A DNA stretch of 64,000 nt, taken from the NCBI GenBank assembly GCA_006503475.1, contig RSEH01000049.1, forward strand, positions 1-64,000, written 5' to 3'. Shown here piece by piece: positions 1-54,454 of the stretch. The stretch is from Stentor roeselii (lineage: Eukaryota; Ciliophora; Heterotrichea; Heterotrichida; Stentoridae). The notes below the pieces were generated by a model that made no database searches, was not told where the DNA came from, and was given only the letters and a program-made list of their open reading frames with translations. Each line of letters begins with the position of its first letter. The first letter of the stretch is position 1. A program made the position numbers and the translations under genes.

Positions 1-297
1 GTTTCTTTTACTCTCTTCATTTTTAATACCTTCGTTTCTTTTACGCTCTTCATTTTTAATACCTTCGTTTCTTTTACGCTCTTCATTTTTAATACCTTTG
101 TTTCTTTTACATTCTTCATTTTTAATACCTTCGTTTCTTTTACTCTCTTCATTTTTAATACCTTTGTTTCTTTTACTCTCTTCATTTTTAATACCTTTGT
201 TTCTTTTACGGTCTTCATTTTTAATACCTTTATTTTTTTAACAAACTTTGCTTCTCTTACTCTTGTTTATTTTACTCGCTTTATTTTGATTACCTTT
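1..297 (-). repeat. 33-bp minisatellite, about nine units
   Basis: Seven near-identical 33-bp units start at 1, 34, 67, 100, 133, 166 and 199, followed by two more degenerate units (232-264 and 265-297). Read on the minus strand each unit is an 18-bp half beginning GTATTAAAAATGAAG and a 15-bp half beginning GTAAAAGAAACAAAG. The three bases between the two 15-mers are the most variable (AGA, AGC, AAT, ACC). Because 33 is a multiple of three, the minus strand stays open through the perfect units, in the same register as the B-box-like reading frame to its right, as a repeating Lys-rich 11-residue peptide (VKETKVLKMKR). The array reaches the window edge, so its true length is unknown. It may be a coding repeat of a decayed gene tail or a non-coding minisatellite. 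Confidence 0.9.
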
Positions 298-30634: not shown

Positions 30635-31669
30635 ATGAGAAACCTAAAAATGGAAATGAACAATTCCAACTCCGACTCAACTCTTCCAAAAATAAAGAAT
30701 TCCCGTCACAGCAAGCCTCCAAAACTAAAGCGTTTTTTCAATAATCGAAACCAGGCAAGAAACACTTACTCAAAAAGAATTTTAGAAAAATCCAAAAGGT
30801 ACTACTCGAAACCAGTCGATACTTTAGCGACGACGATCAATAAATCAAAGGAAAAGCACCCGAATCTCGTTAATCGATATCTTTTCTTCAAGCCGCATGT
30901 ATCGGCTTCATCGTGGATCGCTATTGAAAGCAAAACTGGACGTTATCTTGATGGCAAAGATGAAGACGAAGTTAGGGAAATTGCAAGTCTTACTAAAATT
31001 ATGACTTGCATCACTGCGATTCAGGAAATCGCTTTTTTGAGAAGGTCGTTTGAGGAACAGGTAAGGGTCTCGGATGTCGCTGCTACTATGGAAGGTACTA
31101 CTGCTGAATTACAGCCTGGAGATGAACTGTCGCTTTGGGATTTACTTCATGCTTTGATGCTACCTTCGGGTAATGATGCTGCTATGGCGGTTGCTGAACA
31201 TATTGGGAAATTCATTCATCAAGGCGGCGATGCTGTCGCCGCCTTTGTAGAAAAGATGAATTTCAATGCTATGAGTCTGGATTTAAAACAAATGAAGTTT
31301 ACTAATCCGCATGGCATGTCTACAAGTCTCAACCTAAGCACAGCTCGAAACGTGGCCTTACTAGCTTCTCACTGCATGAAAGTTCCTCCATTCCGTAAAA
31401 TCGTTTCAACAAAATCCCACGAATGCAGTATTTTCAACCCTTCAGGAATCCGTAAAGTCGAATGGTTCAACACAAACGCCCTTCTCGAGAAAGGTTTCTG
31501 CGGAGTGAAAACAGGAATAACTCCAGCAGCAGGTCCCTGCCTGTGTTTTTGCATGGAAAGAAAGAAAAAGAAGCTATTAGTAGTATTATTGAATTCAAAA
31601 AGCATGGAATCCCGATGGCGAGAAGCTCTAAAGTTATGGAAATACGCAAGTCTTCACCTTTTACATTAA
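30635..31669 (+). CDS. D-Ala-D-Ala carboxypeptidase (peptidase S11, bacterial type)
   Basis: 344 residues. All three active-site motifs of the penicillin-binding/beta-lactamase fold are intact: S118-L-T-K121 (nucleophile and general base), S178-G-N180 and K292-T-G294. WIAIESKTGRYL before the first motif and FTNPHGM between the others are typical of the DacA/S11 family. In bacteria this enzyme trims the terminal D-Ala from peptidoglycan peptides; a ciliate has no peptidoglycan, so digestion of bacterial prey walls or another amide substrate is possible. The first 85 residues are basic and polar with no signal peptide, odd for an enzyme that is normally exported. No intron is seen. Its stop lies 10 bp from that of a convergent gene. 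Confidence 0.92.
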   Translation: MRNLKMEMNNSNSDSTLPKIKNSRHSKPPKLKRFFNNRNQARNTYSKRILEKSKRYYSKPVDTLATTINKSKEKHPNLVNRYLFFKPHVSASSWIAIESKTGRYLDGKDEDEVREIASLTKIMTCITAIQEIAFLRRSFEEQVRVSDVAATMEGTTAELQPGDELSLWDLLHALMLPSGNDAAMAVAEHIGKFIHQGGDAVAAFVEKMNFNAMSLDLKQMKFTNPHGMSTSLNLSTARNVALLASHCMKVPPFRKIVSTKSHECSIFNPSGIRKVEWFNTNALLEKGFCGVKTGITPAAGPCLCFCMERKKKKLLVVLLNSKSMESRWREALKLWKYASLHLLH

Positions 31670-36657: not shown

Positions 36658-38451
36658 TTAATTTACTCTATACTTCTTAGAGATTTTACAAAGGTACAGA
36701 AATGCAAGAAAGTGAGTGATGATCGCAATGCAGGATAAAGCGAGAACGTTCTGCCATTTAGAAATTTGAATATTGTAAAAATCAAGCGGGTCACAAAGTT
36801 CTATCTTCTCATCTAAGCCATTTTTGCATTCTTCCCAGTAGTCGTTGTCGTAATGTTCTAGTTCATTTATCATGCAAGCACTCCAGGAGTACTTGAACAT
36901 TGAAGAGTACTCTAACCATATCAGGTAATTCGGAATACTGTCGTAGTTAACAAAAAGTCCAGCGAATAGTAACTGAATCATTATCGTGAAAGGAGTCGCT
37001 ATTGAAGCCGCTTCGATATTTGGAAGAAAAATCAACAAAAAGTTTCCATATCCGCGACTTGTGAAGTCAAGAAGAAGGATAATGAAGACAAAGAAAAATA
37101 TCTGAGGAACGTGGTCGAGACTTAAACCCACTGCCAGGTATAACAGGAAAGAAATGCAAAAAGTTATGATCTGGTCGAAGGGGATGTCGAAAATAAGCTT
37201 GCTAAGGTAAAAAGCTCCTGGACTGTACATCTTACTCGCCTGCTCTCTGATAAATATCGCTTTGTCTGTCGATAAGGACGTGGTACTGTTCGCTCCGATG
37301 AAGGCCATGTAAATGTGAAGAATGAAAATTATCCCTGCCCTGTCCCTTAAAGATGTAAAGTCATCTCCACTACAAGCGTCAAAATAAGCAGCCATCACAA
37401 TCAACAAGAACATAACATTCGCTGATACTTTATAAATAATCGACATTAAATTCCTAGTCCCGTTTAAAGATGATCTTTTAATAAGTAGTTGCAGTTCTTT
37501 AAAGAAACCTGCTGATTCTCGTTGAAAAAGTTCAGGTAACTGACTTTTGACTATAATTAATTCTTTTTTTTCAACAGCGGCTTTAATTTTTTCGATGTTT
37601 TCTTTGTAGTCATCGTCTATTTCAGTGACTAGTTCAAGTAAAAATTCAGAAGGGTTGCTGAACTCAGGGTAAAAAAACCCGAGTTTCTGAAAATAGTCCA
37701 TCGCAGTGACTGCTTCTCCGTGATACACAATTTCATTCCCTCCAAAAAGCAACACCTTATCAAAAAGACTATAAATAAACGAGTTCGGCTGGTGAATCGT
37801 CGCAACAACAGTGACTCCACTGCCGGACAACTTCCTCATCAACTCAATCAAACTTTCCGCATTGAAACTATCAAGACCCGTGGTAGGTTCATCAAGAAAA
37901 AGAATAGAAGGGTCAGTTAAAAGTTCAACGCCAATAGAAACTCTTTTCTTTTCCCCTCCAGAGATTCCTTTTTTGAGGAACCCTCCAATAAAGCTTTCTT
38001 CACAGGACTTCAAACCGAGTTGTTCAATGATTTCATCAACTCTGCCTTTCACTTGTCTTCGAGACATTTTGAATGAGGCACTGAATTCAAGAGTTTCTCT
38101 TACTTTTAAATGCTCCAGCAAGACTTCGTCTTGCATCACGTAACCTGCAACTGAATTAAAATCTAAAGATTCTCGATGATGACCGTTGATGAAAACAGAT
38201 CCTGTGTATTCAAGACCTGATAAATAGTGACGACGGTTTGATAGGAAATTTAAAAAAGTCGTCTTTCCTGAACCTGATGCTCCGAGGATTGTTGTGAATG
38301 AACCGCGATGGATGCATCCGGAGATCTTGTTTACTACTGGGATTGGAGATAAGGATTCGGAGTTACGGATTCGTGAACGCTTTTCGGATTTGGAGAGAGG
38401 ACGGACTACGGAAAAGTCTTGCCATGATATGTCTACTCCTTTTTCAACCAT
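36658..38451 (-). CDS. ABCG-type half-transporter 1
   Basis: 597 residues with the ABCG order: nucleotide-binding domain first (Walker A GASGSGKTT about 57-65, signature ISGGEKKR 163-170, Walker B ILFLDEPTTGLDS about 183-195), then six membrane segments from about residue 345. It contains the typical stretch DRAGIIFILHIYM and a loop before the last helix rich in Cys and acidic residues. Half-transporters of the White/ABCG group work as dimers and export lipids, sterols or pigments. Stentor makes the pigment stentorin, but no link can be read from the sequence. It is the last of three tandem paralogs on this strand. Confidence 0.93.
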   Translation of the reverse strand: MVEKGVDISWQDFSVVRPLSKSEKRSRIRNSESLSPIPVVNKISGCIHRGSFTTILGASGSGKTTFLNFLSNRRHYLSGLEYTGSVFINGHHRESLDFNSVAGYVMQDEVLLEHLKVRETLEFSASFKMSRRQVKGRVDEIIEQLGLKSCEESFIGGFLKKGISGGEKKRVSIGVELLTDPSILFLDEPTTGLDSFNAESLIELMRKLSGSGVTVVATIHQPNSFIYSLFDKVLLFGGNEIVYHGEAVTAMDYFQKLGFFYPEFSNPSEFLLELVTEIDDDYKENIEKIKAAVEKKELIIVKSQLPELFQRESAGFFKELQLLIKRSSLNGTRNLMSIIYKVSANVMFLLIVMAAYFDACSGDDFTSLRDRAGIIFILHIYMAFIGANSTTSLSTDKAIFIREQASKMYSPGAFYLSKLIFDIPFDQIITFCISFLLYLAVGLSLDHVPQIFFFVFIILLLDFTSRGYGNFLLIFLPNIEAASIATPFTIMIQLLFAGLFVNYDSIPNYLIWLEYSSMFKYSWSACMINELEHYDNDYWEECKNGLDEKIELCDPLDFYNIQISKWQNVLALSCIAIITHFLAFLYLCKISKKYRVN

Positions 38452-39035
38452 TGTTTTTATTTTGGAGTTTTGGAGGATTTGAAAGGTGAAGGTGGAAATT
38501 AAGATTTTTTTTTTTTGTTGGGGTTTTGGGATTTTATGGATTTTTTTAGGTTTGGAAGAGATTTGGATTTTTTTTAGATTTTTTTGGACTTTTAGCGGGT
38601 TTTAAGATAAAATCGATATAAGAATTGTAAGGAATTAACATTTATAAATTGATTTTTTTATTTGATTTGCCTATAATGATTGAATTTATAAGACCTATGG
38701 AAAGATTAATATATTAAATAAGAGGTTATTCTTATTTTCAAAGTCTATCAAAAAAGCACTAAAAAATGAATGTTGAAATAAAAAGTAATTAAAAAATTTT
38801 TAGTCCTTGAAATCCATTAAGTTAAATCATCTTTATTTTTAATATCATTTAAAAAATGCACAAATATATATAATTAATAATCATATAAATAAGATTCACT
38901 TTGTTATCATGTAGAAAATAATCTAAACTCAGCCACAAGTACAAAAGTCAACCCACTCCAACGAACTTCCCTCCTAATCTCTAAAAAATCTCCCTTCTTA
39001 TAACTAACTTCTCTAAATTCTAAATATCTACCCTA
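38452..39035. other. Spacer between ABCG copies
   Basis: 584 bp of AT-rich DNA between ABCG genes 1 and 2, with a G/T-rich start (38480-38620). No gene or repeat seen. It is much longer than the 17 bp between copies 2 and 3. Confidence 0.5.
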
Positions 39036-40841
39036 CTAATTGACTCGATACTTCTTAGCAATAAGATTCAAAAACAAGAAAGCAAGCGAGTGAGTGATAA
39101 TAGCAATACAAGACAAAGCAAGTATATTATGCCATTTGGGTATAGTGATACTATAAAAATCAAGAGGATCACACATATCCAAATTAATCTTTTTACTTCC
39201 CGTATATTTCCCATCACATTCCTGCCAATAGTCATCGTCATGCCCTTCAAGTTCATTATACATGCAAGCGCTCCAAGAGTACTTAAACATCGACATATAT
39301 TCAAGCCAAATCAAGTAATTAGGAATATTTTCATAATTGATAAACAACCCCGCAAACAGCAACTGCAAAATAACCACAAACGGTGTAGCAGATGAAGCAG
39401 CTTCAATATTCGGCATCGCAATAAGAATAAAATTCCCCCATCCACGACTGGTCAAATCAAGTAAGTACAAAACAAAAACAAAGAAAAAGATATGATCAGC
39501 AGTGTCAAGTCTCAGTCCAATCGCCAGGTAAAGCAAGAAGCCCATAATGATTAAAATGATCTGGTCAAAAGGAATATCAAAAACCAACTTGCTCATATAA
39601 AACGCGCCAGGACTATATAACTTACTTGACTGTTCCCTCATGAATATTGCCTTGTCAGTCGACAGCGTAGTTGTGCTGTTTACTGAAATAAAAGACATAA
39701 AAACAAGGATAATGAAAATAATCCCTGCCCTGTCTGAAACTGAAACTAAAGTATCGTCGTCACATGCTTGGTAGTAAGCTGCCAGGATCAGAAGTAAAAA
39801 GAAAATATTCGCTACTGCTTTGATCAGGATTGAAATATAACCTCTTAAGATGTTAGTGGAAGACCTGGATACCAAGAGTCTCAGTGAGTTGAAGAATCCG
39901 GAATGTTCTCTTTGGAATAATTCAGGAAGTTCTTTTTCTTCTATCAAAAGGTCATTTTTTACTATCGCTTTTTTCAGTTTTTCGATGTTTTTCGGGTAGT
40001 TTTCATGAGATTCAGTTATAAGTTCGAGTAGGTATTCCGAAGGATTATAAAACTCCGGGCATGTCAGTCCTAAAGTGTCAAAATGGTTTAAAGAGTTTTC
40101 AGCACTTCCATGGTAAATCACCTCATTCGCACCTAGAAGCATGATTTGGTCAAATAATGCGAAAATATAAGAATTAGGCTGATGAATCGTCGCTATAACT
40201 GTCACACCCGTCTTCGAAAGTTGCCCAAGTAACTCCACCAAACTTTCCGCATTAAATGAATCTAAACCAGTCGTCGGTTCATCCAAGAACAGAACAGAAG
40301 GGTCAGTTAACAATTCGACTCCAATAGAAACTCTTTTCTTTTCCCCTCCAGAAATCCCTTTCCTTACAAATCCTCCAACGAAACTATCTTCACAAGCTTT
40401 AAGTCCAAGTTGTTCAATAATATCTTGAACCCTTTTTCTTGCCTGATGTTTCGACATCTTAAAACTTGCACTGAAATTCAAAGTTTCCTTAACCGTCAAA
40501 TTTTCAAGTAAAACTTCCTCTTGCATCACATAGCCAGCGACTGAGTTGAAATCCAATTTTTTTCGATGATATCCATTGATAAAAACATCGCCTGAAAACT
40601 CAAGTCCAGCTAAAAAATGCAGCCTATTCGAGAGAAAATTCAAAAAAGTGGTCTTTCCGCAGCCGGAAGGTCCTAAAATCGTGGTCATCGTTCCTTTCTC
40701 AATAACTCCTGAAATTTGATTGATTACAGGAATTGGTTCCACACTTAGGCCACTTTTACTTCTTATTTTTTTCTCTGATTTCGACAGAGGCCGAACTACT
40801 GAAAAGTTCTGCCAAGCGATATCTACACCTTTACCAGCCAT
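39036..40841 (-). CDS. ABCG-type half-transporter 2
   Basis: 601 residues, closely similar to its two neighbours. Walker A is GPSGCGKTT, signature ISGGEKKR, Walker B VLFLDEPTTGLDS; six membrane segments follow, with DRAGIIFIILVFM in the membrane domain and an extended acidic loop (YWQECDGKYTGSKKINLDMC) near the end. Start context is TTATATTAATG. The upstream ABCG gene ends only 17 bp before this start. Confidence 0.93.
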   Translation of the reverse strand: MAGKGVDIAWQNFSVVRPLSKSEKKIRSKSGLSVEPIPVINQISGVIEKGTMTTILGPSGCGKTTFLNFLSNRLHFLAGLEFSGDVFINGYHRKKLDFNSVAGYVMQEEVLLENLTVKETLNFSASFKMSKHQARKRVQDIIEQLGLKACEDSFVGGFVRKGISGGEKKRVSIGVELLTDPSVLFLDEPTTGLDSFNAESLVELLGQLSKTGVTVIATIHQPNSYIFALFDQIMLLGANEVIYHGSAENSLNHFDTLGLTCPEFYNPSEYLLELITESHENYPKNIEKLKKAIVKNDLLIEEKELPELFQREHSGFFNSLRLLVSRSSTNILRGYISILIKAVANIFFLLLILAAYYQACDDDTLVSVSDRAGIIFIILVFMSFISVNSTTTLSTDKAIFMREQSSKLYSPGAFYMSKLVFDIPFDQIILIIMGFLLYLAIGLRLDTADHIFFFVFVLYLLDLTSRGWGNFILIAMPNIEAASSATPFVVILQLLFAGLFINYENIPNYLIWLEYMSMFKYSWSACMYNELEGHDDDYWQECDGKYTGSKKINLDMCDPLDFYSITIPKWHNILALSCIAIITHSLAFLFLNLIAKKYRVN

Positions 40842-40858
40842 TAATATAAGAAGCCATT

Positions 40859-42655
40859 CTAATTAACTCTAAATTTTTTAGCGAGTTTTCTGAGTGATAA
40901 ATAAGCTAAAAAGTGCATAATGATTGTAATCATGAATAAAGCGAGAACATTATGCCACTTGGGAATGTCAATGTTAAAAAAATCGACAGGATCGCAAAGA
41001 ACCAGCTGCTGAGTATGAGGCTTTTTTTCACATCCATTGAAATGGTCATCATCGAATATTTCAAACTCGTTGATCATGGCGCCGCCCCAGGAGTATTTAA
41101 ACATTGACATGTACTCCAACCAGATCAGGTAATTCGGAATACTTTTAAAGTTAATGAAAAGTCCTGAAAACAAGAGCTGCATGATAATCGCAAAAGGAAT
41201 CGCTGCATTCGCAGCTTCTAAATTAGGAAGAACGATCATCAACACTGCACTGTAGCCTCTTGAAATCCAGTCGACTAATAAAAGTAAAAGAACGAAGAAA
41301 AAGATCTGATTTGGGTCATCTAGACTTAAGCCAACGGCAAGGTAAAGTAAAAAGGCTGAGACAAAAGTGAATAACTGGTTGAAGGGAATGTCGAAGAAGA
41401 TTTTTGAGAGGTAAAAAGCGGCAGGACTGTAGATTTTATTTGCTTGTTCTCTTGAAAATAACACCTTGTCCTTTGCGAAGGAATTCATGCTGTTCGCGAC
41501 GGTGAAAGACGTGAAAACTTGAATGATGAAGATGATTCCTGCTCTATCACTAACTGAGTCTAAAGAGTCACTATCACATGCCTGGTAAAATGCAGCCATA
41601 ACAAGTAAAATAAAAACAGTCAATGAAATCCCTTTATACACAAACATCATCTTATTCCTGATCATATTCATAGCACTTCTCTTTACTAAAATCTTGATTT
41701 CATTAAAAAAACCTGCAAAGTTCTTCTCAAAAATCCTCGGAAGTTCTTCTTCAACAAGTTGAATTTCAGTCCTTGCAACTTTTTCAGTTAAAACTTTGAT
41801 GTCCTGTTCATAGTTAATCGAAGTGCGAGTCACAAGTTCTAAAAAATATTCAGCAGGATTACTGAACTTAGGACATTTAAACCCGATATTTTCGAAGTAA
41901 TCCAAAGAGTCCTTCGCCGGTCCATGAAAAATGATTTCTTTTCCTCCAATGATCATCATCTTATCAAATAATTCAAAAATATAAGCATTTGGCTGATGAA
42001 TAGTCGCAATCACCGTCACTCCAGTGCCCGACAACTTTTTCAACAACTCGATCAGACTTTCTGAAGTGAACGAGTCCAGCCCAGTGGTTGGCTCATCCAG
42101 AAAAAGAACTGACGGGTCGGTCAGAAGTTCCACGCCGATTGAAACTCGTTTTTTTTCACCTCCTGAGATGCCTTTCGCCATGTATCCCCCGATTAAGTTG
42201 TTTTCACAGCTTAAAAGACCCAACTGAGAAATCACCTCATCGACTCTTTGCTCTGCCACTGATGATGACATTTCGAAAAGCGCTGTAAACATCAGAGTTT
42301 CACGAGTTGTAAGGTGTTCTAATAGCACTTCTTCTTGCATCACGTAACCGGCAAGAGAGTTGAAATCGACTGAGCTTCGAGGGTAGCCGTTTATGTAAAC
42401 TTCGCCTTGAAACTCAAGCCCTGCCAGGAAGTGGAGACGATTGGAGAGAAAATTCAGAAGAGTTGTCTTACCCGAACCTGAAGGACCGAGAATAGTTGTA
42501 AGAGTACCTTTTTCTATTGTACCTGAGACTTTGTTTAAAATCTCGACTGGGTCGAGAGACTTTCCTTGTTTGAAGTTGATTTTTTTCTCTGTTCTTGATA
42601 AGGGACGAATGACTCTGAAATCTTTCCAACTGATTCTTACTCCTTTGTCAGACAT
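40859..42655 (-). CDS. ABCG-type half-transporter 3
   Basis: 598 residues. Walker A GPSGSGKTT, signature ISGGEKKR and Walker B VLFLDEPTTGLDS are intact, followed by the six-segment ABC2 membrane domain (DRAGIIFIIQVFTSF; PFAIIMQLLFSGLF). It is the most diverged of the three. It is first in transcription order, and its stop is 17 bp from the start of copy 2, so the pair may share a transcript or use overlapping untranslated regions. The substrate is unknown. Confidence 0.93.
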   Translation of the reverse strand: MSDKGVRISWKDFRVIRPLSRTEKKINFKQGKSLDPVEILNKVSGTIEKGTLTTILGPSGSGKTTLLNFLSNRLHFLAGLEFQGEVYINGYPRSSVDFNSLAGYVMQEEVLLEHLTTRETLMFTALFEMSSSVAEQRVDEVISQLGLLSCENNLIGGYMAKGISGGEKKRVSIGVELLTDPSVLFLDEPTTGLDSFTSESLIELLKKLSGTGVTVIATIHQPNAYIFELFDKMMIIGGKEIIFHGPAKDSLDYFENIGFKCPKFSNPAEYFLELVTRTSINYEQDIKVLTEKVARTEIQLVEEELPRIFEKNFAGFFNEIKILVKRSAMNMIRNKMMFVYKGISLTVFILLVMAAFYQACDSDSLDSVSDRAGIIFIIQVFTSFTVANSMNSFAKDKVLFSREQANKIYSPAAFYLSKIFFDIPFNQLFTFVSAFLLYLAVGLSLDDPNQIFFFVLLLLLVDWISRGYSAVLMIVLPNLEAANAAIPFAIIMQLLFSGLFINFKSIPNYLIWLEYMSMFKYSWGGAMINEFEIFDDDHFNGCEKKPHTQQLVLCDPVDFFNIDIPKWHNVLALFMITIIMHFLAYLSLRKLAKKFRVN

Positions 42656-42752: not shown

Positions 42753-43673
42753 CTATAAAAAGTACTCAGGGGCTGGCTTTTTTGCTGGGATATGTCGTTC
42801 ATCGTGAGGAGCGGCGTTGAATACTTTGAATTCGTATTTCAGGTTTTCATCGAGTTTCATTATGGCAGCTACGTTTCCACAGCGATAACAATAGTTTGGA
42901 GCGCTCCAGACTGTTACGAGTTTATTGTCGAACATGCACTTGTAGCCTTCCATTACAAGCTGATGAGCACGGGCAATCATGGTTATGCTGTTCGTATGGC
43001 AAAAGTCTTTCACAATGTCACCGCCGAATACATATCCAGCCCCCCTAGGCGACAATCCCCATCCCGTCATTTCTTCCGGGTCAGACCAAAGCAAGTCACA
43101 CATAGCTCCATCATGAGGCACTTCTTGTTTCCTATCAATAGCGCGTATCTCATCCAGCGAAGACAACGACGGAGAAAGCCCGCCATGAACACAAAAAATC
43201 TTCCCATCAACCAATGATCCCAAAGCCAAATAATCAAACACTTCAGTGCAGTACCTCCAAACATTCGCTCCTCCATATTTCCTTATACATTCATCATAAA
43301 ACCCATAAACCTGCGTGATTTGACGTGATTCATGATTTCCTCTTATCAAAGTTATTTGCTCCGGGTATCTTACTTTATAAGCAAGCAGTAAAAGCCAGGT
43401 TTCTACGGAAAAATACCCTCGATCAACAAAGTCCCCAAGAAAAATATAGTTCGTTTCAGGTGGGTCTCCTCCAACTTTAAACAATTCAATCAAATCATAG
43501 AACTGTCCATGTATATCTCCACAGATAGTGACAGGTGATGATACCTTAGTAACATTGCTTTCATCAATCAAGATTTCCTTAGCTTGTCGGCAGAGTTCTT
43601 TGACTTCTGACTCTTTTATGTACTCACATTTTTTTAGCTGTTCGATTTGTCTGTCTAGGTCTGAATGATCCAT
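42753..43673 (-). CDS. PPP4C: Serine/threonine protein phosphatase 4 catalytic subunit
   Basis: 306 residues, close to human PP4C in length and almost co-linear. Metal-binding motifs are [21 protein letters not shown] and [20 protein letters not shown]; later VHGGLSPS and the ending PAPEYFL match the conserved C-terminal tail whose last Leu is methylated. The run [20 protein letters not shown] at the start is diagnostic for PP4 over PP2A or PP6. It acts in the nucleus and at centrosomes or basal bodies with R2/R3 subunits. Its ATG is 12 bp from the divergent eIF3i ATG. Confidence 0.95.
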
Positions 43674-43685
43674 GGTTTATAATAA
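43674..43685. promoter_or_regulatory. 12-bp interval between divergent start codons
   Basis: GGTTTATAATAA is the whole sequence between the PP4C and eIF3i ATGs. It contains TATAAT on the plus strand and TTATTATAAA on the minus strand. Core promoter and leaders of both genes must overlap each other or the opposite coding region. Confidence 0.65.
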
Positions 43686-44684
43686 ATGAGGCCAATTATT
43701 ATTAGCTGTCACTCTCGACCTGTGTGCATCGTCAAGTTCAACAGAGATGGAGACTTGTTCTTCACTGGGTCTCTTGACGGCACCGTGACTGCCTTTTGGA
43801 CTGACCCGGTTGAAAGACTTGGGACTTACAAGTCGGAAGGAGCAGTGAAAGCGTTTAGTGTGTCAGAAGACTCGAAGGTAATAATAATTGGCTCAGCTAT
43901 TAACGGTATCTTCGTGTTTGAAGTAGAAACTGGAGTCCTTTTAACGACTCTTCCAGCACTTCAATTGAAACAACTGGATTTCGCTGCAGGAAGTAAGAGT
44001 TTTTTCCTTATTCACAACAGAAGTAAACATACCATTGTGGATATCATTAAAAGCTCGGTGTTTGGGAAGAAATATGAAGACTTGGACTATGCTTCTTATA
44101 AAGAAAATGAGAAAATAACTCTAGTTGATTCAGAAACGACTTACACCAGAGGTGCCTGGGGATATTTGAATAGAACTTTAGTACTTGGGACAAATCAAGG
44201 CTTCATAGAAATCTTTGATACCAGCAATAAGCAGAAGGTGTTGTCGATTCATCCTCATACTAATATCATCACTGATATCAGGTTCACACTTGACTTCAGT
44301 CTTATGATCACTGCTTCTAGGGACTCTTATTGCAATGTTTTTGACCCTTCGGAGTTTCAAGTAGTGAGAGTTTATAACGCGCAAAGACCTTTGAACTCAG
44401 CAGCTATCTCGCCTTTGGTACTCACTGATAATAAGTATCATGCGGTTATTGGGGGAGGGCAGGAAACTAGAGATGTTACTACGACGAAAGCGGAACAAGG
44501 AGGATTTGAAATCACTGTGTTTAATATGATGTTTGGAAATGAAGTTGGAGCACTTAAAGGACATTTCGGACCTGTTCACTCAGTTGATATTCATCCTAAG
44601 GGAACTATTATTATTTCAGGGTCAGAAGATGGACATGCCAGGTATCACAAGTTGGATAATGATTATTTCACTAATAAGAACTAG
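43686..44684 (+). CDS. EIF3I: Translation initiation factor eIF3 subunit I
   Basis: 332 residues forming a single seven-bladed WD40 propeller. Family-specific runs are MRPIIISCHSRPVCIVKFNR at the start, NRDGDLFFTGS, PLNSAAISPLV, the GGGQETRDVTTT loop and KGHFGPVHSVDIHPKG near the end; length matches eIF3i (about 325). The subunit belongs to the eIF3 b-g-i module that binds the 40S ribosome and assists scanning. It is divergent from PP4C and ends 44 bp from the stop of a convergent coiled-coil gene. Confidence 0.95.
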   Translation: MRPIIISCHSRPVCIVKFNRDGDLFFTGSLDGTVTAFWTDPVERLGTYKSEGAVKAFSVSEDSKVIIIGSAINGIFVFEVETGVLLTTLPALQLKQLDFAAGSKSFFLIHNRSKHTIVDIIKSSVFGKKYEDLDYASYKENEKITLVDSETTYTRGAWGYLNRTLVLGTNQGFIEIFDTSNKQKVLSIHPHTNIITDIRFTLDFSLMITASRDSYCNVFDPSEFQVVRVYNAQRPLNSAAISPLVLTDNKYHAVIGGGQETRDVTTTKAEQGGFEITVFNMMFGNEVGALKGHFGPVHSVDIHPKGTIIISGSEDGHARYHKLDNDYFTNKN

Positions 44685-44728: not shown

Positions 44729-45985
44729 TCACCTCTCAATCAATTCTTCAATTGCAGTTGCCATACACGACGTGAAACTAATAAAATCCTGATACCCCGG
44801 CCCTCTCTTTTCATTGCGTTTTTTAGGGTTTCTCAGATGATAAGTTTGCGTAGAAGACTCACTCATTCTCGCAGTTTTAGACATCGTAGACAGACTTTCT
44901 TTATCTCTCGTGCTTTTTAAAGTTGATTCCTGCCGAGCATTTTTCAGTTTTTCTTTAAGTTCATCAATAGTTTTAATATAAATTTCATTTGACTTGTTAG
45001 ACTGTGCCAAGTCATTAACAAGTCTTGAATTTTCAGTCTTGATCATAATGACTTCATAGTTCTTTTCTTCCAGTTCAGCCTCAATTTTAACCAAAACGTC
45101 GAAATCCAGTGATTTGATGTCTCCAAATCGACTCCCTTCATTTTTTTCCCCTAATTTCTTGATTTCTTCCTCCTTTTCCGCCAAAATCCCTTGCATTTCT
45201 TTCATTTGTTCTTCAAACTTAACCAAATTCTTAACTTTCCTCTTCAATTTTGCTTCAATTTCCACAAGTTGTTTATTAAGCTTATCATTTTGTTGACTTA
45301 AATCAAGTAAACTTTGGCTTCTTTGATATTCTTCAAACATTTCTTCAATTTGGGTAATTTTCGAGGTAATAGCAGCGAAGGACAGTTTAATTGATTTGAA
45401 AGGGACTGAATCAGGTTGACTACAAATCCATTCAAAGATATTTTTCAATTCCTGAAGCGGGTTATTTACCAGGTCCTCACTTACTTTTTTCAAGTAACTC
45501 TTCGCCTTCCAATGCTCAAGCTGCGACTTATAAAAATTCGCAGGGTTGACCTAAGTATTTTTTACATTTTCCAAAGCTTTTTTATACGTCCTTCTTTCTT
45601 TATCCCAGACATTTGCTCTTTCTTTCCAAAGTTCTTGTTTTTTTTCTAAGTTTTCAACTTTTTTCACCAGTTTTGATTGAGAACTAGTTTTTTGAGAACT
45701 TGAACGAAAAGTTGATTTTGGAATAACTCTTTCAGAGTTTATTCTTGAAGTCATTTTACTTCGATTTCCGTTTGGAGTACTGCTTCGAAGGCCTTTTGGC
45801 GTTGCGGTATTCAAGACTTGGGAATTTCGAGGTTGTAAACTGAATCTTCTTGTGTCAAAAATATCATTTTGGTTCGGTTCTAAGTAGTTGGAAAACAAGT
45901 CCTGGTCAAATGAAAGGTGAATGTGAGAAATACTTGACTCGTTCATGTTGTTTTCGATTTGGCTCAGCCCGACTAGTTGAGACAT
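44729..45985 (-). CDS. Coiled-coil protein with basic disordered head
   Basis: A 15-nt intron (45551-45565) joins two frames into 413 residues. The first 100 residues are polar and basic (TPKGLRSSTPNGNRSKMTSR); a long coiled coil follows (about 100-340, for example KLVKKVENLEKKQELWKERA and IKKLGEKNEG), then a basic tail (RNPKKRNEKRGPG). No enzyme domain is seen. It could be a basal-body or cortical structural protein, but no family is named. Its ATG lies 5 bp after the stop of the upstream DENN gene on the same strand. Confidence 0.8.
45551..45565 (-). other. 15-nt intron of the coiled-coil gene
   Basis: Minus-strand GTAAAAAATACTTAG. Removal of its TAG joins ALEN to VNPANFYKSQ. Confidence 0.9.
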
Positions 45986-48512: not shown

Positions 48513-50078
48513 CTAATTTTCTTCTGATCTAATTCTCTTAATCAAATCATTAGCTGAAGGCATAGTCATGCGATTATAATGATTAGATCCCAAATATCCA
48601 ATCAAGCTTTGATACAAATAATAACTTTCCTTAGGATACCTAGTCAAATTATTTGTATAATCAACATAAGTGATCCCAAACCTAACATTAAACCCATCAG
48701 CCCATTCAAAGTTATCCATCAAGCTCCACAAAAAGTACCCTTTAACATTGACCCCATCATCAACAATACTATCCAAAACATTCATAACATGATGATACAC
48801 ATAGTTAACTCTAAAAGTATCATTTAAAACTTGAGGTAAAGGAGTTTGAGTTTCATCAGGACAACTGCATCCATTCTCAAAAATATAAACATGAGGATTC
48901 GAGTACCTTTTTTTAATCCAAGTCAAAATAGACCTAAGTCCTTCAGGATAAACATAAAGCCAAGTCGATTCAGCTCTCGGTCCAATAACATGTCCAGAGG
49001 CATTGAAAGGTGTTCTTTCAACTCTTGAGTCATTCACATAGTTCGACCCAGGATTTCCAGTATATCTCGCATAACTACTTGTATAATAATTGAGACCTAA
49101 AAAATCATAAGACCCTTTCAACAATGCTGAAGTAGTACTGTTAAAAGTAGGAAGTCTTCCATCCTCAATCACACTGGTCATCTCAGGAGGGTACCTGCCG
49201 AAAGTCAATGGGTCAGCGAACCAGGCATACCCGAAGGCCACTACCGTATTAACAGCATTCACATCATTTTGAACTGAAGTATTAAACGGCAAGGCATAGT
49301 CACAGTTGATGGTCATTCCAATCTTTCCTTTATGCTGGGGCTGATACTTAGTCCTATAAGTTTGAACAGCAAGGCCATGAGCCAGCAGGGCATTATGCGC
49401 TGCTATATAAGGTTCAGTGCTTGAATCTCCACCTCCTCCCACACTTTCACACCAGTCTCCAAAGCCAGGACTACATCTTCCAGGAGCATGAATGCCACTT
49501 CCATACCCAATCCAACTAAAAGTCTGAATTTCATTCATTGTAAGCCACCTTTTTACCAGATGTCCGAATCTACTAAAGCAAAAATCAGCGTAAGCGTTAA
49601 ACTTGTTGGGAATGTCAGGGTCAAGCCAAGTACTCACTGATGAAAAGTTGTTGAAAGATTGGGGAAGGTCCCAATGGAATAAAGTGACGTAAGGCTCGAG
49701 ACCTGCATTTTTTATGGATTTTAGAAGGTTGAGGTAGAAGTTTACTCCGTCTTCGTTTATGTTGTTGACGTCACCTGAAGGGAGTAGCCGTGACCAGGAC
49801 AGTGAAAGTCGGAAGGCTTTAACTCCGAGGTTCTGCATTAAGACTAGGTCTTGCTGGTAACGATGGTAAAAATCATCGGCGATTTCGGCTGTGTCACCAT
49901 TTGCGATACGGCCTGCTTGGCTTTGGAAGTAGTCCCAGATTGATGGACCTCTTCCTGAGATGTTCCAAGCGCCTTCGACTTGGAAGGCTGCTGTCGCTGT
50001 TCCCCACGCGAAGTCTGCGGGAAGCACTTGTCCTAGTATTAAGGGGATTATGCAGAGCGATATAAATAATTTCGCCAT
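48513..50078 (-). CDS. Secreted GH1 beta-glucosidase, copy 1
   Basis: 521 residues with an N-terminal signal peptide (MAKLFISLCIIPLILG). The rest is a full glycoside hydrolase family 1 barrel: DFAWGTATAAFQVEGAW opens it, E183 in WLTMNEIQTF is the acid/base and E401 in YIFENGCS is the nucleophile. The usual NEP motif is NEI here. FLWSLMDNFEWADGFNVRFG closes the active site. The enzyme cleaves beta-glucosides, probably in food vacuoles, to digest plant or algal sugars. It is closely similar to the copy at 52889-54454 and both read the same way. No ER-retention signal is present. Confidence 0.95.
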   Translation of the reverse strand: MAKLFISLCIIPLILGQVLPADFAWGTATAAFQVEGAWNISGRGPSIWDYFQSQAGRIANGDTAEIADDFYHRYQQDLVLMQNLGVKAFRLSLSWSRLLPSGDVNNINEDGVNFYLNLLKSIKNAGLEPYVTLFHWDLPQSFNNFSSVSTWLDPDIPNKFNAYADFCFSRFGHLVKRWLTMNEIQTFSWIGYGSGIHAPGRCSPGFGDWCESVGGGGDSSTEPYIAAHNALLAHGLAVQTYRTKYQPQHKGKIGMTINCDYALPFNTSVQNDVNAVNTVVAFGYAWFADPLTFGRYPPEMTSVIEDGRLPTFNSTTSALLKGSYDFLGLNYYTSSYARYTGNPGSNYVNDSRVERTPFNASGHVIGPRAESTWLYVYPEGLRSILTWIKKRYSNPHVYIFENGCSCPDETQTPLPQVLNDTFRVNYVYHHVMNVLDSIVDDGVNVKGYFLWSLMDNFEWADGFNVRFGITYVDYTNNLTRYPKESYYLYQSLIGYLGSNHYNRMTMPSANDLIKRIRSEEN

Positions 50079-52888: not shown

Positions 52889-54454
52889 CTATTGGTCTAT
52901 TAATCTAATTCTTCTAATTAAGTCTTGAGCTGAAGGCATCGTAAATCGACTATAATGGCTTGATCCTAGATAGTTTATCAAGCTTTGGTATAAATAGTAG
53001 CTCTGTTTTGGATACCTTGTCAAGTTGTTATTATAGTCAACGTAAGTTATTCCGAATCTTACATTAAAACCATCTGCCCATTCAAAGTTATCCATCAAGC
53101 TCCATAAAAAGTAACCCTTGACATTAACCCCGTCATCAACAATGCTATCCAAAACATTCATGACATGATTATAAACATAATCAACTCTAAAAGTATCATT
53201 TAAGACTTGAGGTAAAGGAGTTTGAGTTTCATCCGGACAACTACATCCATTCTCAAAAATATAAACATGAGGATTCGAGTACCTTTTTTTAATCCAAGTC
53301 AAGATAGACCTAAGTCCTTCAGGATAAACATAAAGCCAAGTAGATTCAGCTCTCGGTCCAATGACATGTCCAGAGGCATTAGAAGGTGACCCTTGAACTC
53401 TCGAATCATCTCCATAGTTCGATCCAGTTTCCCCTGTATACTTGACATAATTACTCGAATAATAATTCAATCCCAAGAAATCAAAAGACCCTTTCATCAA
53501 AGCAGAGGCACTCGCATTAAACGTAGGAAGTCTTCCTCCAGTGATAACACTCGTCATCTCATCAGGGTACTTCCCAAACACAATCGGATCAGCGAACCAT
53601 CCGAATCCAAAAGCGACGGCAGTATTCACAGCATTCACATCATCCTGAACAGAAGTATTAAAAGGTAAAGCATATCCACTATTAATAGTCATTCCAATTT
53701 TACCTCCATGTTTCTTCTGATACTTATTCCTATAAGTTTGAACAGCAAGTCCATGAGCAAGTAAAGCATTATGAGCAGCGATATAAGGTTCAGTGCCTGA
53801 ATTTCCTCCTCCTCCAACACTTTGACACCAGCTTCCAAACCCTGGACTACATCTTCCAGGAGCATGAGTCCCGACGCCATACCCGATCCAAGCGAAAGTA
53901 GAGATTTCATTCATTGTAAGCCACTTTTTGACGAGATGTCCGAATTTATCAAAGCAAAAATCAGCGTAAGCATTGAACTTGTTGGGAACGTCAGGGTCCA
54001 GCCAGGTGCTGACTGATGTGAAGTTGTTGTAAGCTTGAGGCAAGTCCCAATGAAAAAGAGTCACGTAAGGCTCGATTCCTGCTTGTTTAAGGGCTGTTAA
54101 GAGGTTTAGGTAAAAATTCACTCCTTCTTGATTCACGTTGTTTATGTCGCCTGTTGGAAGGAGACGAGTCCAGGATAAGGACAGTCGGAATGCTTTCACT
54201 CCGAGGGTCTGCATTGAAACGATGTCTTGCTGGTAACGATGGTAAAAATCGTCGGCTACGTCGGCTTTGTCACCGTTCGCGATACGCCCTGGCTGGTCTT
54301 GGAAGTAGTCCCAGATTGATGGACCTCTTCCGAGTATGTCTGAAGCACCTTCGACTTGGAAGGCTGCTGTCGCTGTTCCCCAGGCAAAGTCTGGAGGAAG
54401 TACTTGTCCTAGTATTAGTGGGATGAGTGAAAGAACTATAAGATTCTTTGACAT
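52889..54454 (-). CDS. Secreted GH1 beta-glucosidase, copy 2
   Basis: 521 residues, the same length as copy 1, with signal peptide MSKNLIVLSLIPLILG. Catalytic residues are in WLTMNEISTF (E183) and YIFENGCS (E401). Between about residue 359 and 475 it is almost identical to copy 1 (identical from NASGHVIGPRAE through VLNDTFRV), while the N-terminal half differs at many positions. This points to gene conversion or strong selection on the C-terminal half. Role as for copy 1. Confidence 0.95.
   Translation of the reverse strand: MSKNLIVLSLIPLILGQVLPPDFAWGTATAAFQVEGASDILGRGPSIWDYFQDQPGRIANGDKADVADDFYHRYQQDIVSMQTLGVKAFRLSLSWTRLLPTGDINNVNQEGVNFYLNLLTALKQAGIEPYVTLFHWDLPQAYNNFTSVSTWLDPDVPNKFNAYADFCFDKFGHLVKKWLTMNEISTFAWIGYGVGTHAPGRCSPGFGSWCQSVGGGGNSGTEPYIAAHNALLAHGLAVQTYRNKYQKKHGGKIGMTINSGYALPFNTSVQDDVNAVNTAVAFGFGWFADPIVFGKYPDEMTSVITGGRLPTFNASASALMKGSFDFLGLNYYSSNYVKYTGETGSNYGDDSRVQGSPSNASGHVIGPRAESTWLYVYPEGLRSILTWIKKRYSNPHVYIFENGCSCPDETQTPLPQVLNDTFRVDYVYNHVMNVLDSIVDDGVNVKGYFLWSLMDNFEWADGFNVRFGITYVDYNNNLTRYPKQSYYLYQSLINYLGSSHYSRFTMPSAQDLIRRIRLIDQ

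What the first reader, a model, noticed from the sequence alone, without database searches (positions are those of the whole stretch)
43674..43685. Two housekeeping genes with start codons only 12 bp apart, read in opposite directions
PP4C and eIF3i are both confidently identified and both start exactly at conserved N termini. Only GGTTTATAATAA lies between. A normal TATA box 25-30 bp upstream of transcription start would lie inside the opposite gene. This implies near-leaderless mRNAs or a very compact two-way promoter.
Basis: seen in the sequence. Interest (0 to 1): 0.7.

Follow-up and report, generated by a model that had tools for sequence, protein, structure and literature searches.

The report
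Back-to-back genes in compact ciliate genome
Two essential genes that start 12 bases apart and point in opposite directions are really there, but in this very tightly packed ciliate genome similar pairs are common; the more telling feature is a short TATAA-like word placed directly against the start codon of many genes.

Summary
A PP4C-type phosphatase gene (42753-43673, -) and eIF3i (43686-44684, +) start 12 bp apart (43674-43685, GGTTTATAATAA); both starts are supported by homology. The genome is a 44.39-Mb heterotrich-type ciliate macronuclear genome (CCCTAACA telomere, 15-nt introns, standard code). There the pair is ordinary: my gene calls over 34 sequences give 26 divergent pairs, the ten tightest with gaps of 11, 12, 13, 21, 26, 43, 43, 43, 51 and 52 bp; convergent and tandem gaps are as small. 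TATAA sits directly against many start codons (starting at -5 in 19 of 113 starts versus 21 of 3029 other intergenic ATGs). A weaker TATA bump at -45..-41 may be a conventional box in some genes, but neither gene of this pair has it. Genome-wide, divergent CATTTATA-N0-30-TATAAATG occurs 23 times versus 3 for the converse. The gap is centred on a palindrome TTATAA, putting TATAA at -8 of both genes. Most likely both mRNAs have very short leaders starting in the gap or a few bases inside the neighbour; without RNA data this is inferred. A new instance of a known kind; the ATG-abutting word is the part worth testing.

The parts
42753..43673 (-). PP4C-type serine/threonine phosphatase catalytic subunit gene, single exon, 306 aa
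   Evidence: Metallophos 2.4e-46; PP2A-C chains, about 6e-143; paralogue aligned from residue 1
43686..44684 (+). eIF3 subunit i gene, single exon, 332 aa; the other matches in the genome are weak WD40-level ones
43674..43685 (.). 12-bp start-to-start gap GGTTTATAATAA
43677..43682 (.). Palindrome TTATAA exactly centred in the gap; gives TATAA at -8..-4 of both start codons
   Evidence: read from the sequence; both start contexts listed
43681..43685 (+). AATAA directly against the eIF3i ATG (in-frame TAA at -3), the second commonest TAA context after TATAA
43672..43674 (+). Out-of-frame ATG 14 nt upstream of the eIF3i ATG, created because the PP4C start context CCATGG is palindromic; a long eIF3i leader would carry it
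43665..43667 (+). In-frame ATG 21 nt upstream of eIF3i, closed by TAA TAA before the real start (inside PP4C coding DNA)
44729..45985 (-). Next gene, convergent to eIF3i at 44 bp, with a 15-nt intron GTAAAAAATACTTAG at 45551-45565: marks the heterotrich-type gene structure

Best explanation
An ordinary tight divergent gene pair of a gene-dense heterotrich-type ciliate macronuclear genome. Transcription of each gene most likely starts at, or within roughly 20 bp upstream of, an AT-rich TATAA-like element that lies against or close to the start codon. The two mRNAs therefore have extremely short leaders, and their core promoters share the same 12 bp plus the first bases of each other's coding region. 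The single centred palindrome TTATAA can serve either direction. Two initiation complexes could hardly sit on 12 bp at once, so I infer that one macronuclear copy fires one way at a time; the many copies of the macronucleus (recalled) make this tolerable. Shown here: gene identities, the gap, the pair statistics, the TATAA-at-ATG enrichment. Inferred: start sites, leader lengths, the use of the palindrome by both genes, and alternate firing.
For: Divergent gaps in 34 sequences (26 pairs): 10 of 26 <=60 bp, three of 11-13 bp; convergent 13 of 24 and tandem 10 of 50 <=60 bp. Without the 15 loci drawn by similarity: 6 of 19 divergent <=60 bp. In 6 of the 10 tightest divergent pairs both partners have a Pfam match over the curated cut-off. 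TATAA starting at -5: 19 of 113 gene starts versus 21 of 3029 other intergenic ATGs; the nine other orderings of the same letters at -5 score 0-5. Among starts that already have the in-frame TAA at -3, TA precedes it in 19 of 33 versus 21 of 129 controls (P 4.5e-6); without that TAA, TATAA lies in -10..-1 in 7 of 80 versus 78 of 2900 (P 0.007). TATAAATGG 1848 genome-wide versus 555 for the word read backwards. CATTTATA-N0-30-TATAAATG 23 places versus 3 for its backward control and 3 for the converse arrangement; of 6 of the 23 places read, 2 are clear divergent ORF pairs with 16-bp gaps. Upstream ATGs: 3 seen versus 9.1 expected at -3..-10 (P 0.02), 17 versus 13.6 at -11..-20 and 13 versus 15.1 at -21..-30. 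The C-over-G skew of upstream DNA runs to about -10 with no clear earlier step. Published: heterotrich 3'UTRs 21-23 nt median (PMC4967479, passages); Blepharisma gene-dense with short intergenic and untranslated regions (PMC9942806, passages).
Against: No RNA evidence of any kind. TATAA in this pair starts at -8, not at the modal -5, and PP4C has ACC next to its ATG. Only 28 of 113 starts have TATAA within -10..-1, so the word is common, not universal; among 11 starts near a homologous N-terminus (9 phosphatase loci plus this pair) it is in -10..-1 in 3 and at -5 in 1. A second TATA bump at -45..-41 (8 words from 7 of 80 roomy genes versus 2.5 per bin, P 0.004 before correction for about 19 bins) hints at conventional TATA boxes in some genes. 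The one TBP gene found has the usual wording, so TATAA might be expected to act 25-30 bp upstream of a start site, which would fall inside the coding region if it touches the ATG. Upstream ATGs also dip at -41..-50 (5 versus 16.1), so the depletion test is noisy. 4 of the 6 genome-wide pattern hits that I read are not divergent pairs.
Confidence: 0.58

Rival explanations
1. The start sites lie 15-40 nt upstream of each ATG, inside the opposite coding region, so the two mRNAs overlap head to head. The AT-rich word at the ATG is then mainly a leader or translation-start context, not a promoter element, and real promoter elements, where present, lie around -45.
For: 5'UTRs have a median of 19 nt in Paramecium (PMC5485702, passages), about 18 nt on average in one group of Halteria chromosomes (PMC7858049, passages) and 8-44 nt in 14 Nyctotherus chromosomes (PMC2633312, passages). 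In Pseudokeronopsis the AT-rich element lies between the start site and the start codon (PMC8899921, passages), and in Halteria the chromosomes whose start site lies upstream of the motif were the most expressed. A at -1 and -2 is favoured here, as in translation contexts. The TATA bump at -45..-41 would suit start sites near -15.
Against: The context is T at -5, A at -4, A or T at -3, not a strong A at -3. Upstream ATGs are not depleted at -11..-30. A long eIF3i leader would carry ATGs at -14 (out of frame) and -21. Neither gene of this pair has a TATA at -45..-41.
Confidence: 0.33
2. A specially kept bidirectional promoter that couples PP4C to eIF3i expression.
For: Both are housekeeping-type genes and share one palindrome.
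Against: The PP4C paralogue (75%) has a different divergent partner, a Cdc20/Fizzy-type WD40 gene at 43 bp, and eIF3i has one strong match in the genome. Unrelated genes are paired as tightly in the sample. Conservation of the pair in other heterotrichs could not be tested.
Confidence: 0.06
3. Artefact of assembly or start-codon choice (real starts lie further inside, so the gap is larger).
For: The starts are predictions; pair statistics for genes without homologues depend on my gene finder.
Against: eIF3i aligns to PDB chains from residue 1; the phosphatase aligns to its paralogue from residue 1 and to PP2A from residue 4.
Confidence: 0.02

Closest known systems
Compact heterotrich macronuclear genomes (Blepharisma stoltei, Stentor coeruleus)
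   Same: AT richness, 15-16-nt introns, short intergenic regions, 41 Mb in Blepharisma (PMC9942806, passages); 15 bp introns in Stentor (PMC7858049, passage); CCCTAACA telomere (recalled as heterotrich type)
   Different: 44.39 Mb in 522 contigs; TGA is a stop in 11 of 95 complete gene calls and not tryptophan as in Blepharisma; species not identified
TATA-box-like motif near start sites of Halteria nanochromosomes
   Same: AT/TATA-like word close to start site and start codon, very short 5'UTR
   Different: In the analysed group of 3,876 Halteria chromosomes the start site lies on average 17 bp downstream of the motif and the ATG 18 bp further (PMC7858049, passages); here the word abuts the ATG and lies between genes, not at a telomere
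AT-rich 5' element of Pseudokeronopsis nanochromosomes
   Same: AT-rich element just upstream of the start codon, tied to expression (PMC8899921, passages)
   Different: Different consensus (WnAWTWn), mostly single-gene chromosomes, and an inferred start site upstream of the element
AT-rich initiator of Giardia
   Same: AT-rich word at the start site, start sites 1-27 nt upstream of ATG in histone genes (PMC1872034, passages)
   Different: Unrelated lineage; Giardia TBP is highly divergent (same passages, and the PMC12209930 listing), whereas here TBP has the usual wording

Membership tests
Heterotrich ciliate macronuclear genome | Telomere repeat of CCCTAACA type (recalled) | tested here: met
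   L034 (contig C330 start) begins with (CCCTAACA)n; 1 of the 20 contig starts fetched shows it, one other reads N
Heterotrich ciliate macronuclear genome | 15-nt introns | tested here: met
   36 introns in well-scored complete calls: 27 of 15 nt, 6 of 16, 3 of 17 (only 15-18 nt were allowed and 15 was favoured a priori); one checked by hand
Heterotrich ciliate macronuclear genome | rRNA phylogeny | not tested
   The 18S search failed and was not repeated
Bidirectional gene pair | Two starts in opposite directions at short distance | tested here: met
Bidirectional gene pair | Both directions transcribed from the shared region | not testable with these tools
   no RNA data
Leaderless or near-leaderless mRNA | 5' end at, or within a few nt of, the ATG | tested here: inconclusive
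   Indirect only: upstream-ATG depletion at -3..-10 (3 versus 9.1, P 0.02) with a second unexplained dip at -41..-50
Canonical TATA-box promoter | TATA peak 25-35 bp upstream of the start site | tested here: inconclusive
   Start sites are unknown. Measured from the ATG the main peak is at -5; a weak bump at -45..-41 in roomy genes (8 versus 2.5, P 0.004 uncorrected) could be such a box; this pair lacks it
eIF3i | Full-length EIF3I profile over the cut-off | tested here: met
   267.8 bits versus 200
PP4C | Closer to PP4C than to PP2A or PP6 | not tested
   PPP/PP2A-group membership shown; the PP4C name rests on recall

The most novel reading that the evidence does not exclude
[quoted passage not shown] A TATAA word touching the ATG acts as the initiator, read by an ordinary TBP, so that one 6-bp palindrome can launch two near-leaderless mRNAs in opposite directions.
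Probability: 0.22. Interest if true: 0.65.

Novelty: new member of a known kind. Interest (0 to 1): 0.35.

Why it matters
It gives a clean minimal case for asking how little DNA two eukaryotic promoters need, and it points to a TATAA word at the start codon of many genes that cap-selected methods could test. In ten paper searches and the passages I read of 13 papers I saw no description of such a word in heterotrichs; most listed papers I did not open.

Tried and rejected
Blepharisma-type code (TGA = W) was considered because none of 15 well-supported window genes ends in TGA. Rejected: reading TGA as W does not lengthen the main genes; of the 35 best phosphatase-family matches in the genome (E <= 1.9e-51) 34 have no stop inside and one has a single TGA (8 weaker matches, most with several stops, left aside); 11 of 95 complete calls end in TGA.

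A raw count of GTA..TAG words by length gave no clear intron signal; the gene finder with in-frame splicing did.

My first reading that there is no TATA peak at all upstream was wrong: on rechecking there is a bump at -45..-41 (12 words in 113 starts). 4 of these 12 come from genes with a neighbour within 60 bp, 3 of them in the 43-bp pairs, where the mate's own start word falls there; the rest remain.

Upstream-ATG depletion as a ruler for leader length gave a suggestive but noisy answer. Apart from the words at the ATG, A-tracts at about -70..-55 stood out in roomy genes.

Possible bias of the start word: TATAA at -5 contains an in-frame TAA, and a gene finder may favour an ATG after a stop. 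The conditional test answers this in part.

Conservation of the pair in other heterotrichs could not be tested: I had no collection holding such genomes. Direct numbers on heterotrich 5' ends were sought in the ten paper searches and not found beyond 'short'. In PMC13291615 the terms UTR/untranslated gave nothing.

Weak points of the pair statistics: my gene finder forbids overlapping genes, so gaps below 0 cannot appear; complete genes scoring 15 or less were dropped; 15 of the 34 sequences were loci drawn by similarity to the two proteins and 18 were contig starts; L030 (nearly all N), L035 (same as the window) and loci overlapping others were left out.

Full report
WHAT IS THERE. The window holds a PP4C-type phosphatase gene on the minus strand (42753-43673, 306 aa) and an eIF3i gene on the plus strand (43686-44684, 332 aa), each a single open frame. 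The 12 bases between the start codons are GGTTTATAATAA, as reported. eIF3i is sure: 267.8 bits against a cut-off of 200, covering the profile from position 1, and the PDB eIF3i alignments shown run from residue 1. The phosphatase belongs to the PP2A group; its 75% identical paralogue on contig C391 aligns from residue 1 to the end without gaps. So both starts are supported by homology. The label PP4C itself is recalled, not tested.

WHOSE GENOME. The window is part of an unnamed 44.39-Mb, 522-contig assembly. One of the 20 contig starts read begins with repeats of CCCTAACA, a heterotrich ciliate telomere by recall. The neighbouring gene at 44729-45985 needs a 15-nt intron GTAAAAAATACTTAG to stay open, and 27 of 36 introns in the well-scored complete gene calls are 15 nt (only 15-18 nt were allowed and 15 was favoured a priori). 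Published heterotrich introns are 15-16 nt (PMC9942806 and PMC11441545, passages). Stops are TAA 47, TAG 37, TGA 11 of 95 complete calls. I conclude: heterotrich-type macronuclear genome with the standard code; species unknown.

HOW UNUSUAL IS 12 BP. I wrote a small gene finder (codon model, 15-18-nt introns, no overlaps) and ran it on 34 sequences: the window, 15 loci fetched by similarity and 18 contig starts. Of 134 genes, counting those cut at an edge and the complete ones scoring over 15, neighbours form 26 divergent, 24 convergent and 50 tandem pairs. The ten tightest divergent gaps are 11, 12, 13, 21, 26, 43, 43, 43, 51 and 52 bp; the median is 236. Convergent gaps go down to 3 bp and tandem gaps to 2 bp. 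Leaving out the loci drawn by similarity, 6 of 19 divergent gaps are <=60 bp. In 6 of the 10 tightest divergent pairs both partners match a Pfam family over its cut-off, for example a Cdc20/Fizzy-type gene with the PP4C paralogue (43 bp) and an RRM gene with an HMG-box gene (52 bp). The reported gap is therefore the low end of an ordinary spread.

THE START-CODON WORD. Aligned on 113 start codons, the last five bases upstream are strongly A+T (71 of 113 with no G or C, against 602 of 3029 other intergenic ATGs), with T favoured at -5 and A at -4, -2 and -1. TATAA begins at -5 in 19 of 113 starts against 21 of 3029 control ATGs; the nine other orderings of the same letters reach 0 to 5 there. 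This word contains an in-frame TAA, which a gene finder might favour; among starts that have TAA at -3, TA precedes it in 19 of 33, against 21 of 129 control ATGs with TAA at -3 (P 4.5e-6), and among starts without it TATAA still lies in -10..-1 in 7 of 80 against 78 of 2900 (P 0.007). The word is found in tight and roomy settings: TATAA within -10..-1 in 9 of 33 starts with a neighbour within 100 bp, 15 of 64 with more room and 4 of 16 with no neighbour in the piece. For 11 starts near a homologous N-terminus (9 single-domain phosphatase loci plus this pair; the longer paralogue in L004 was left out), TAA stands directly before the ATG in 6, TATAA is within -10..-1 in 3 and at -5 in 1, so there the looser AT context is clearer than TATAA itself.

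A SECOND, WEAKER TATA BUMP. TATA also rises at -45..-41: 12 words in 113 starts, where other 5-nt bins from -100 to -11 hold 0-6. Four of the 12 come from genes with a neighbour within 60 bp, three of them in 43-bp divergent pairs, where the mate's start word falls at that place. In 80 roomy genes there are 8 words from 7 genes, against 2.5 on average (P 0.004, before correction for about 19 bins). Neither PP4C nor eIF3i has it.

GENOME-WIDE CHECKS. TATAAATGG occurs 1848 times on both strands, the word read backwards 555 times. The divergent arrangement CATTTATA-N0-30-TATAAATG occurs at 23 places and its backward control at 3; the converse arrangement occurs at 3, its control at 2. I read six of the 23 places: two (L046, L047) are clear pairs of diverging open frames 16 bp apart; L045 has one open frame only; the three 10-bp cases are not divergent pairs. 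So the pattern count is enriched but not pure.

WHAT THE GAP LOOKS LIKE. Read directly: TTATAA at 43677-43682 is a palindrome exactly centred in the gap, giving TATAA at -8 to each gene. eIF3i has in addition AATAA against its ATG; PP4C has ACC there. In the 16-bp pairs L046 and L047 each start has its own word; here there is room for only one. Because the PP4C start context is CCATGG, the plus strand carries an ATG 14 nt upstream of eIF3i, out of frame, and another in-frame one at 21 nt that is closed by TAA TAA. A long eIF3i leader would have to pass both. PP4C has no upstream ATG nearer than 56 nt.

HOW LONG ARE THE LEADERS. There is no RNA evidence. Indirectly, upstream ATGs are scarce at -3..-10 (3 seen, 9.1 expected from column composition, P 0.02) and at expected levels at -11..-20 (17 versus 13.6) and -21..-30 (13 versus 15.1); but they also dip at -41..-50 (5 versus 16.1) and, less, further upstream, so the ruler is noisy. 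AUGs very near a cap are often skipped (recalled), so leaders up to about 20 nt remain compatible. The C-over-G skew of upstream DNA in roomy genes reaches to about -10 with no clear earlier step. Published ciliate values: 19 nt median in Paramecium and 88 in Tetrahymena (PMC5485702, passages), about 18 nt in one group of Halteria chromosomes (PMC7858049, passages), 8-44 nt in 14 Nyctotherus chromosomes (PMC2633312, passages). Heterotrich 3'UTRs have a median of 21-23 nt (PMC4967479, passages). The Pfam search found one TBP gene, with the wording RFAAVIMRI/LIFSSGK and FPGLIYRM/LLIFVSGK, which by recall contains the phenylalanines that kink TATA DNA.

MECHANISM. Most likely each gene's initiation region is collapsed onto its start codon: the polymerase starts at or just upstream of the AT word, leaders are 0 to about 20 nt, and in this pair the two core promoters share 12 bp and spill into each other's first codons. 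One macronuclear copy probably fires in one direction at a time (inference). The main rival places the start sites 15-40 nt upstream inside the opposite gene and makes the AT word a leader or translation context, as the position of the AT element in Pseudokeronopsis would suggest (PMC8899921, passages) and as the -45 bump would allow. The pair does not look specially kept: the PP4C paralogue has another partner, and eIF3i has one strong match.

VERDICT. Observation confirmed; interpretation partly supported; ordinary for this genome. The start-codon TATAA word is the better lead.

Noticed in passing
L048 1932-1986 (contig C77, between the TBP gene and a divergent methyltransferase-like gene): Degenerate interstitial telomere-like repeats (CCCTAACA / CCTTAACA) between two genes, ending about 15 bp before a start codon preceded by TATAATA; possibly an old or alternative telomere-addition site. 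The name methyltransferase-like is a reading of the translation, not a search result.
   Followed up: no
window 48513-50078 and 52889-54454: Two family-1 glycosyl hydrolase genes, 83% identical over 517 residues, with a stretch of more than 60 identical residues from about 361 on: looks like local gene conversion. My gene finder put a 15-nt intron in each, which the full-length open frames do not need.
   Followed up: no
window 30635-31669: D-Ala-D-Ala carboxypeptidase family (Peptidase_S11) gene in a ciliate genome; candidate for transfer from bacteria.
   Followed up: no
window 36658-42655: Three consecutive ABC transporter genes with ABC2 membrane domains in tandem, two of them 17 bp apart.
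   Followed up: no
window 1-297: 33-bp tandem repeat array at the contig start.
   Followed up: no
upstream of roomy genes in the sample: Upstream DNA is C-rich and G-poor on the coding strand over about 150 bp, with A-tracts enriched at -70..-55, a TATA bump at -45..-41 and ATGs scarce at -41..-50; could mark nucleosome or promoter structure.
   Followed up: partly
genome-wide phosphatase family: 35 strong PPP-family matches in G000, 34 of them with no stop inside the match, i.e. no sign of introns there.
   Followed up: no
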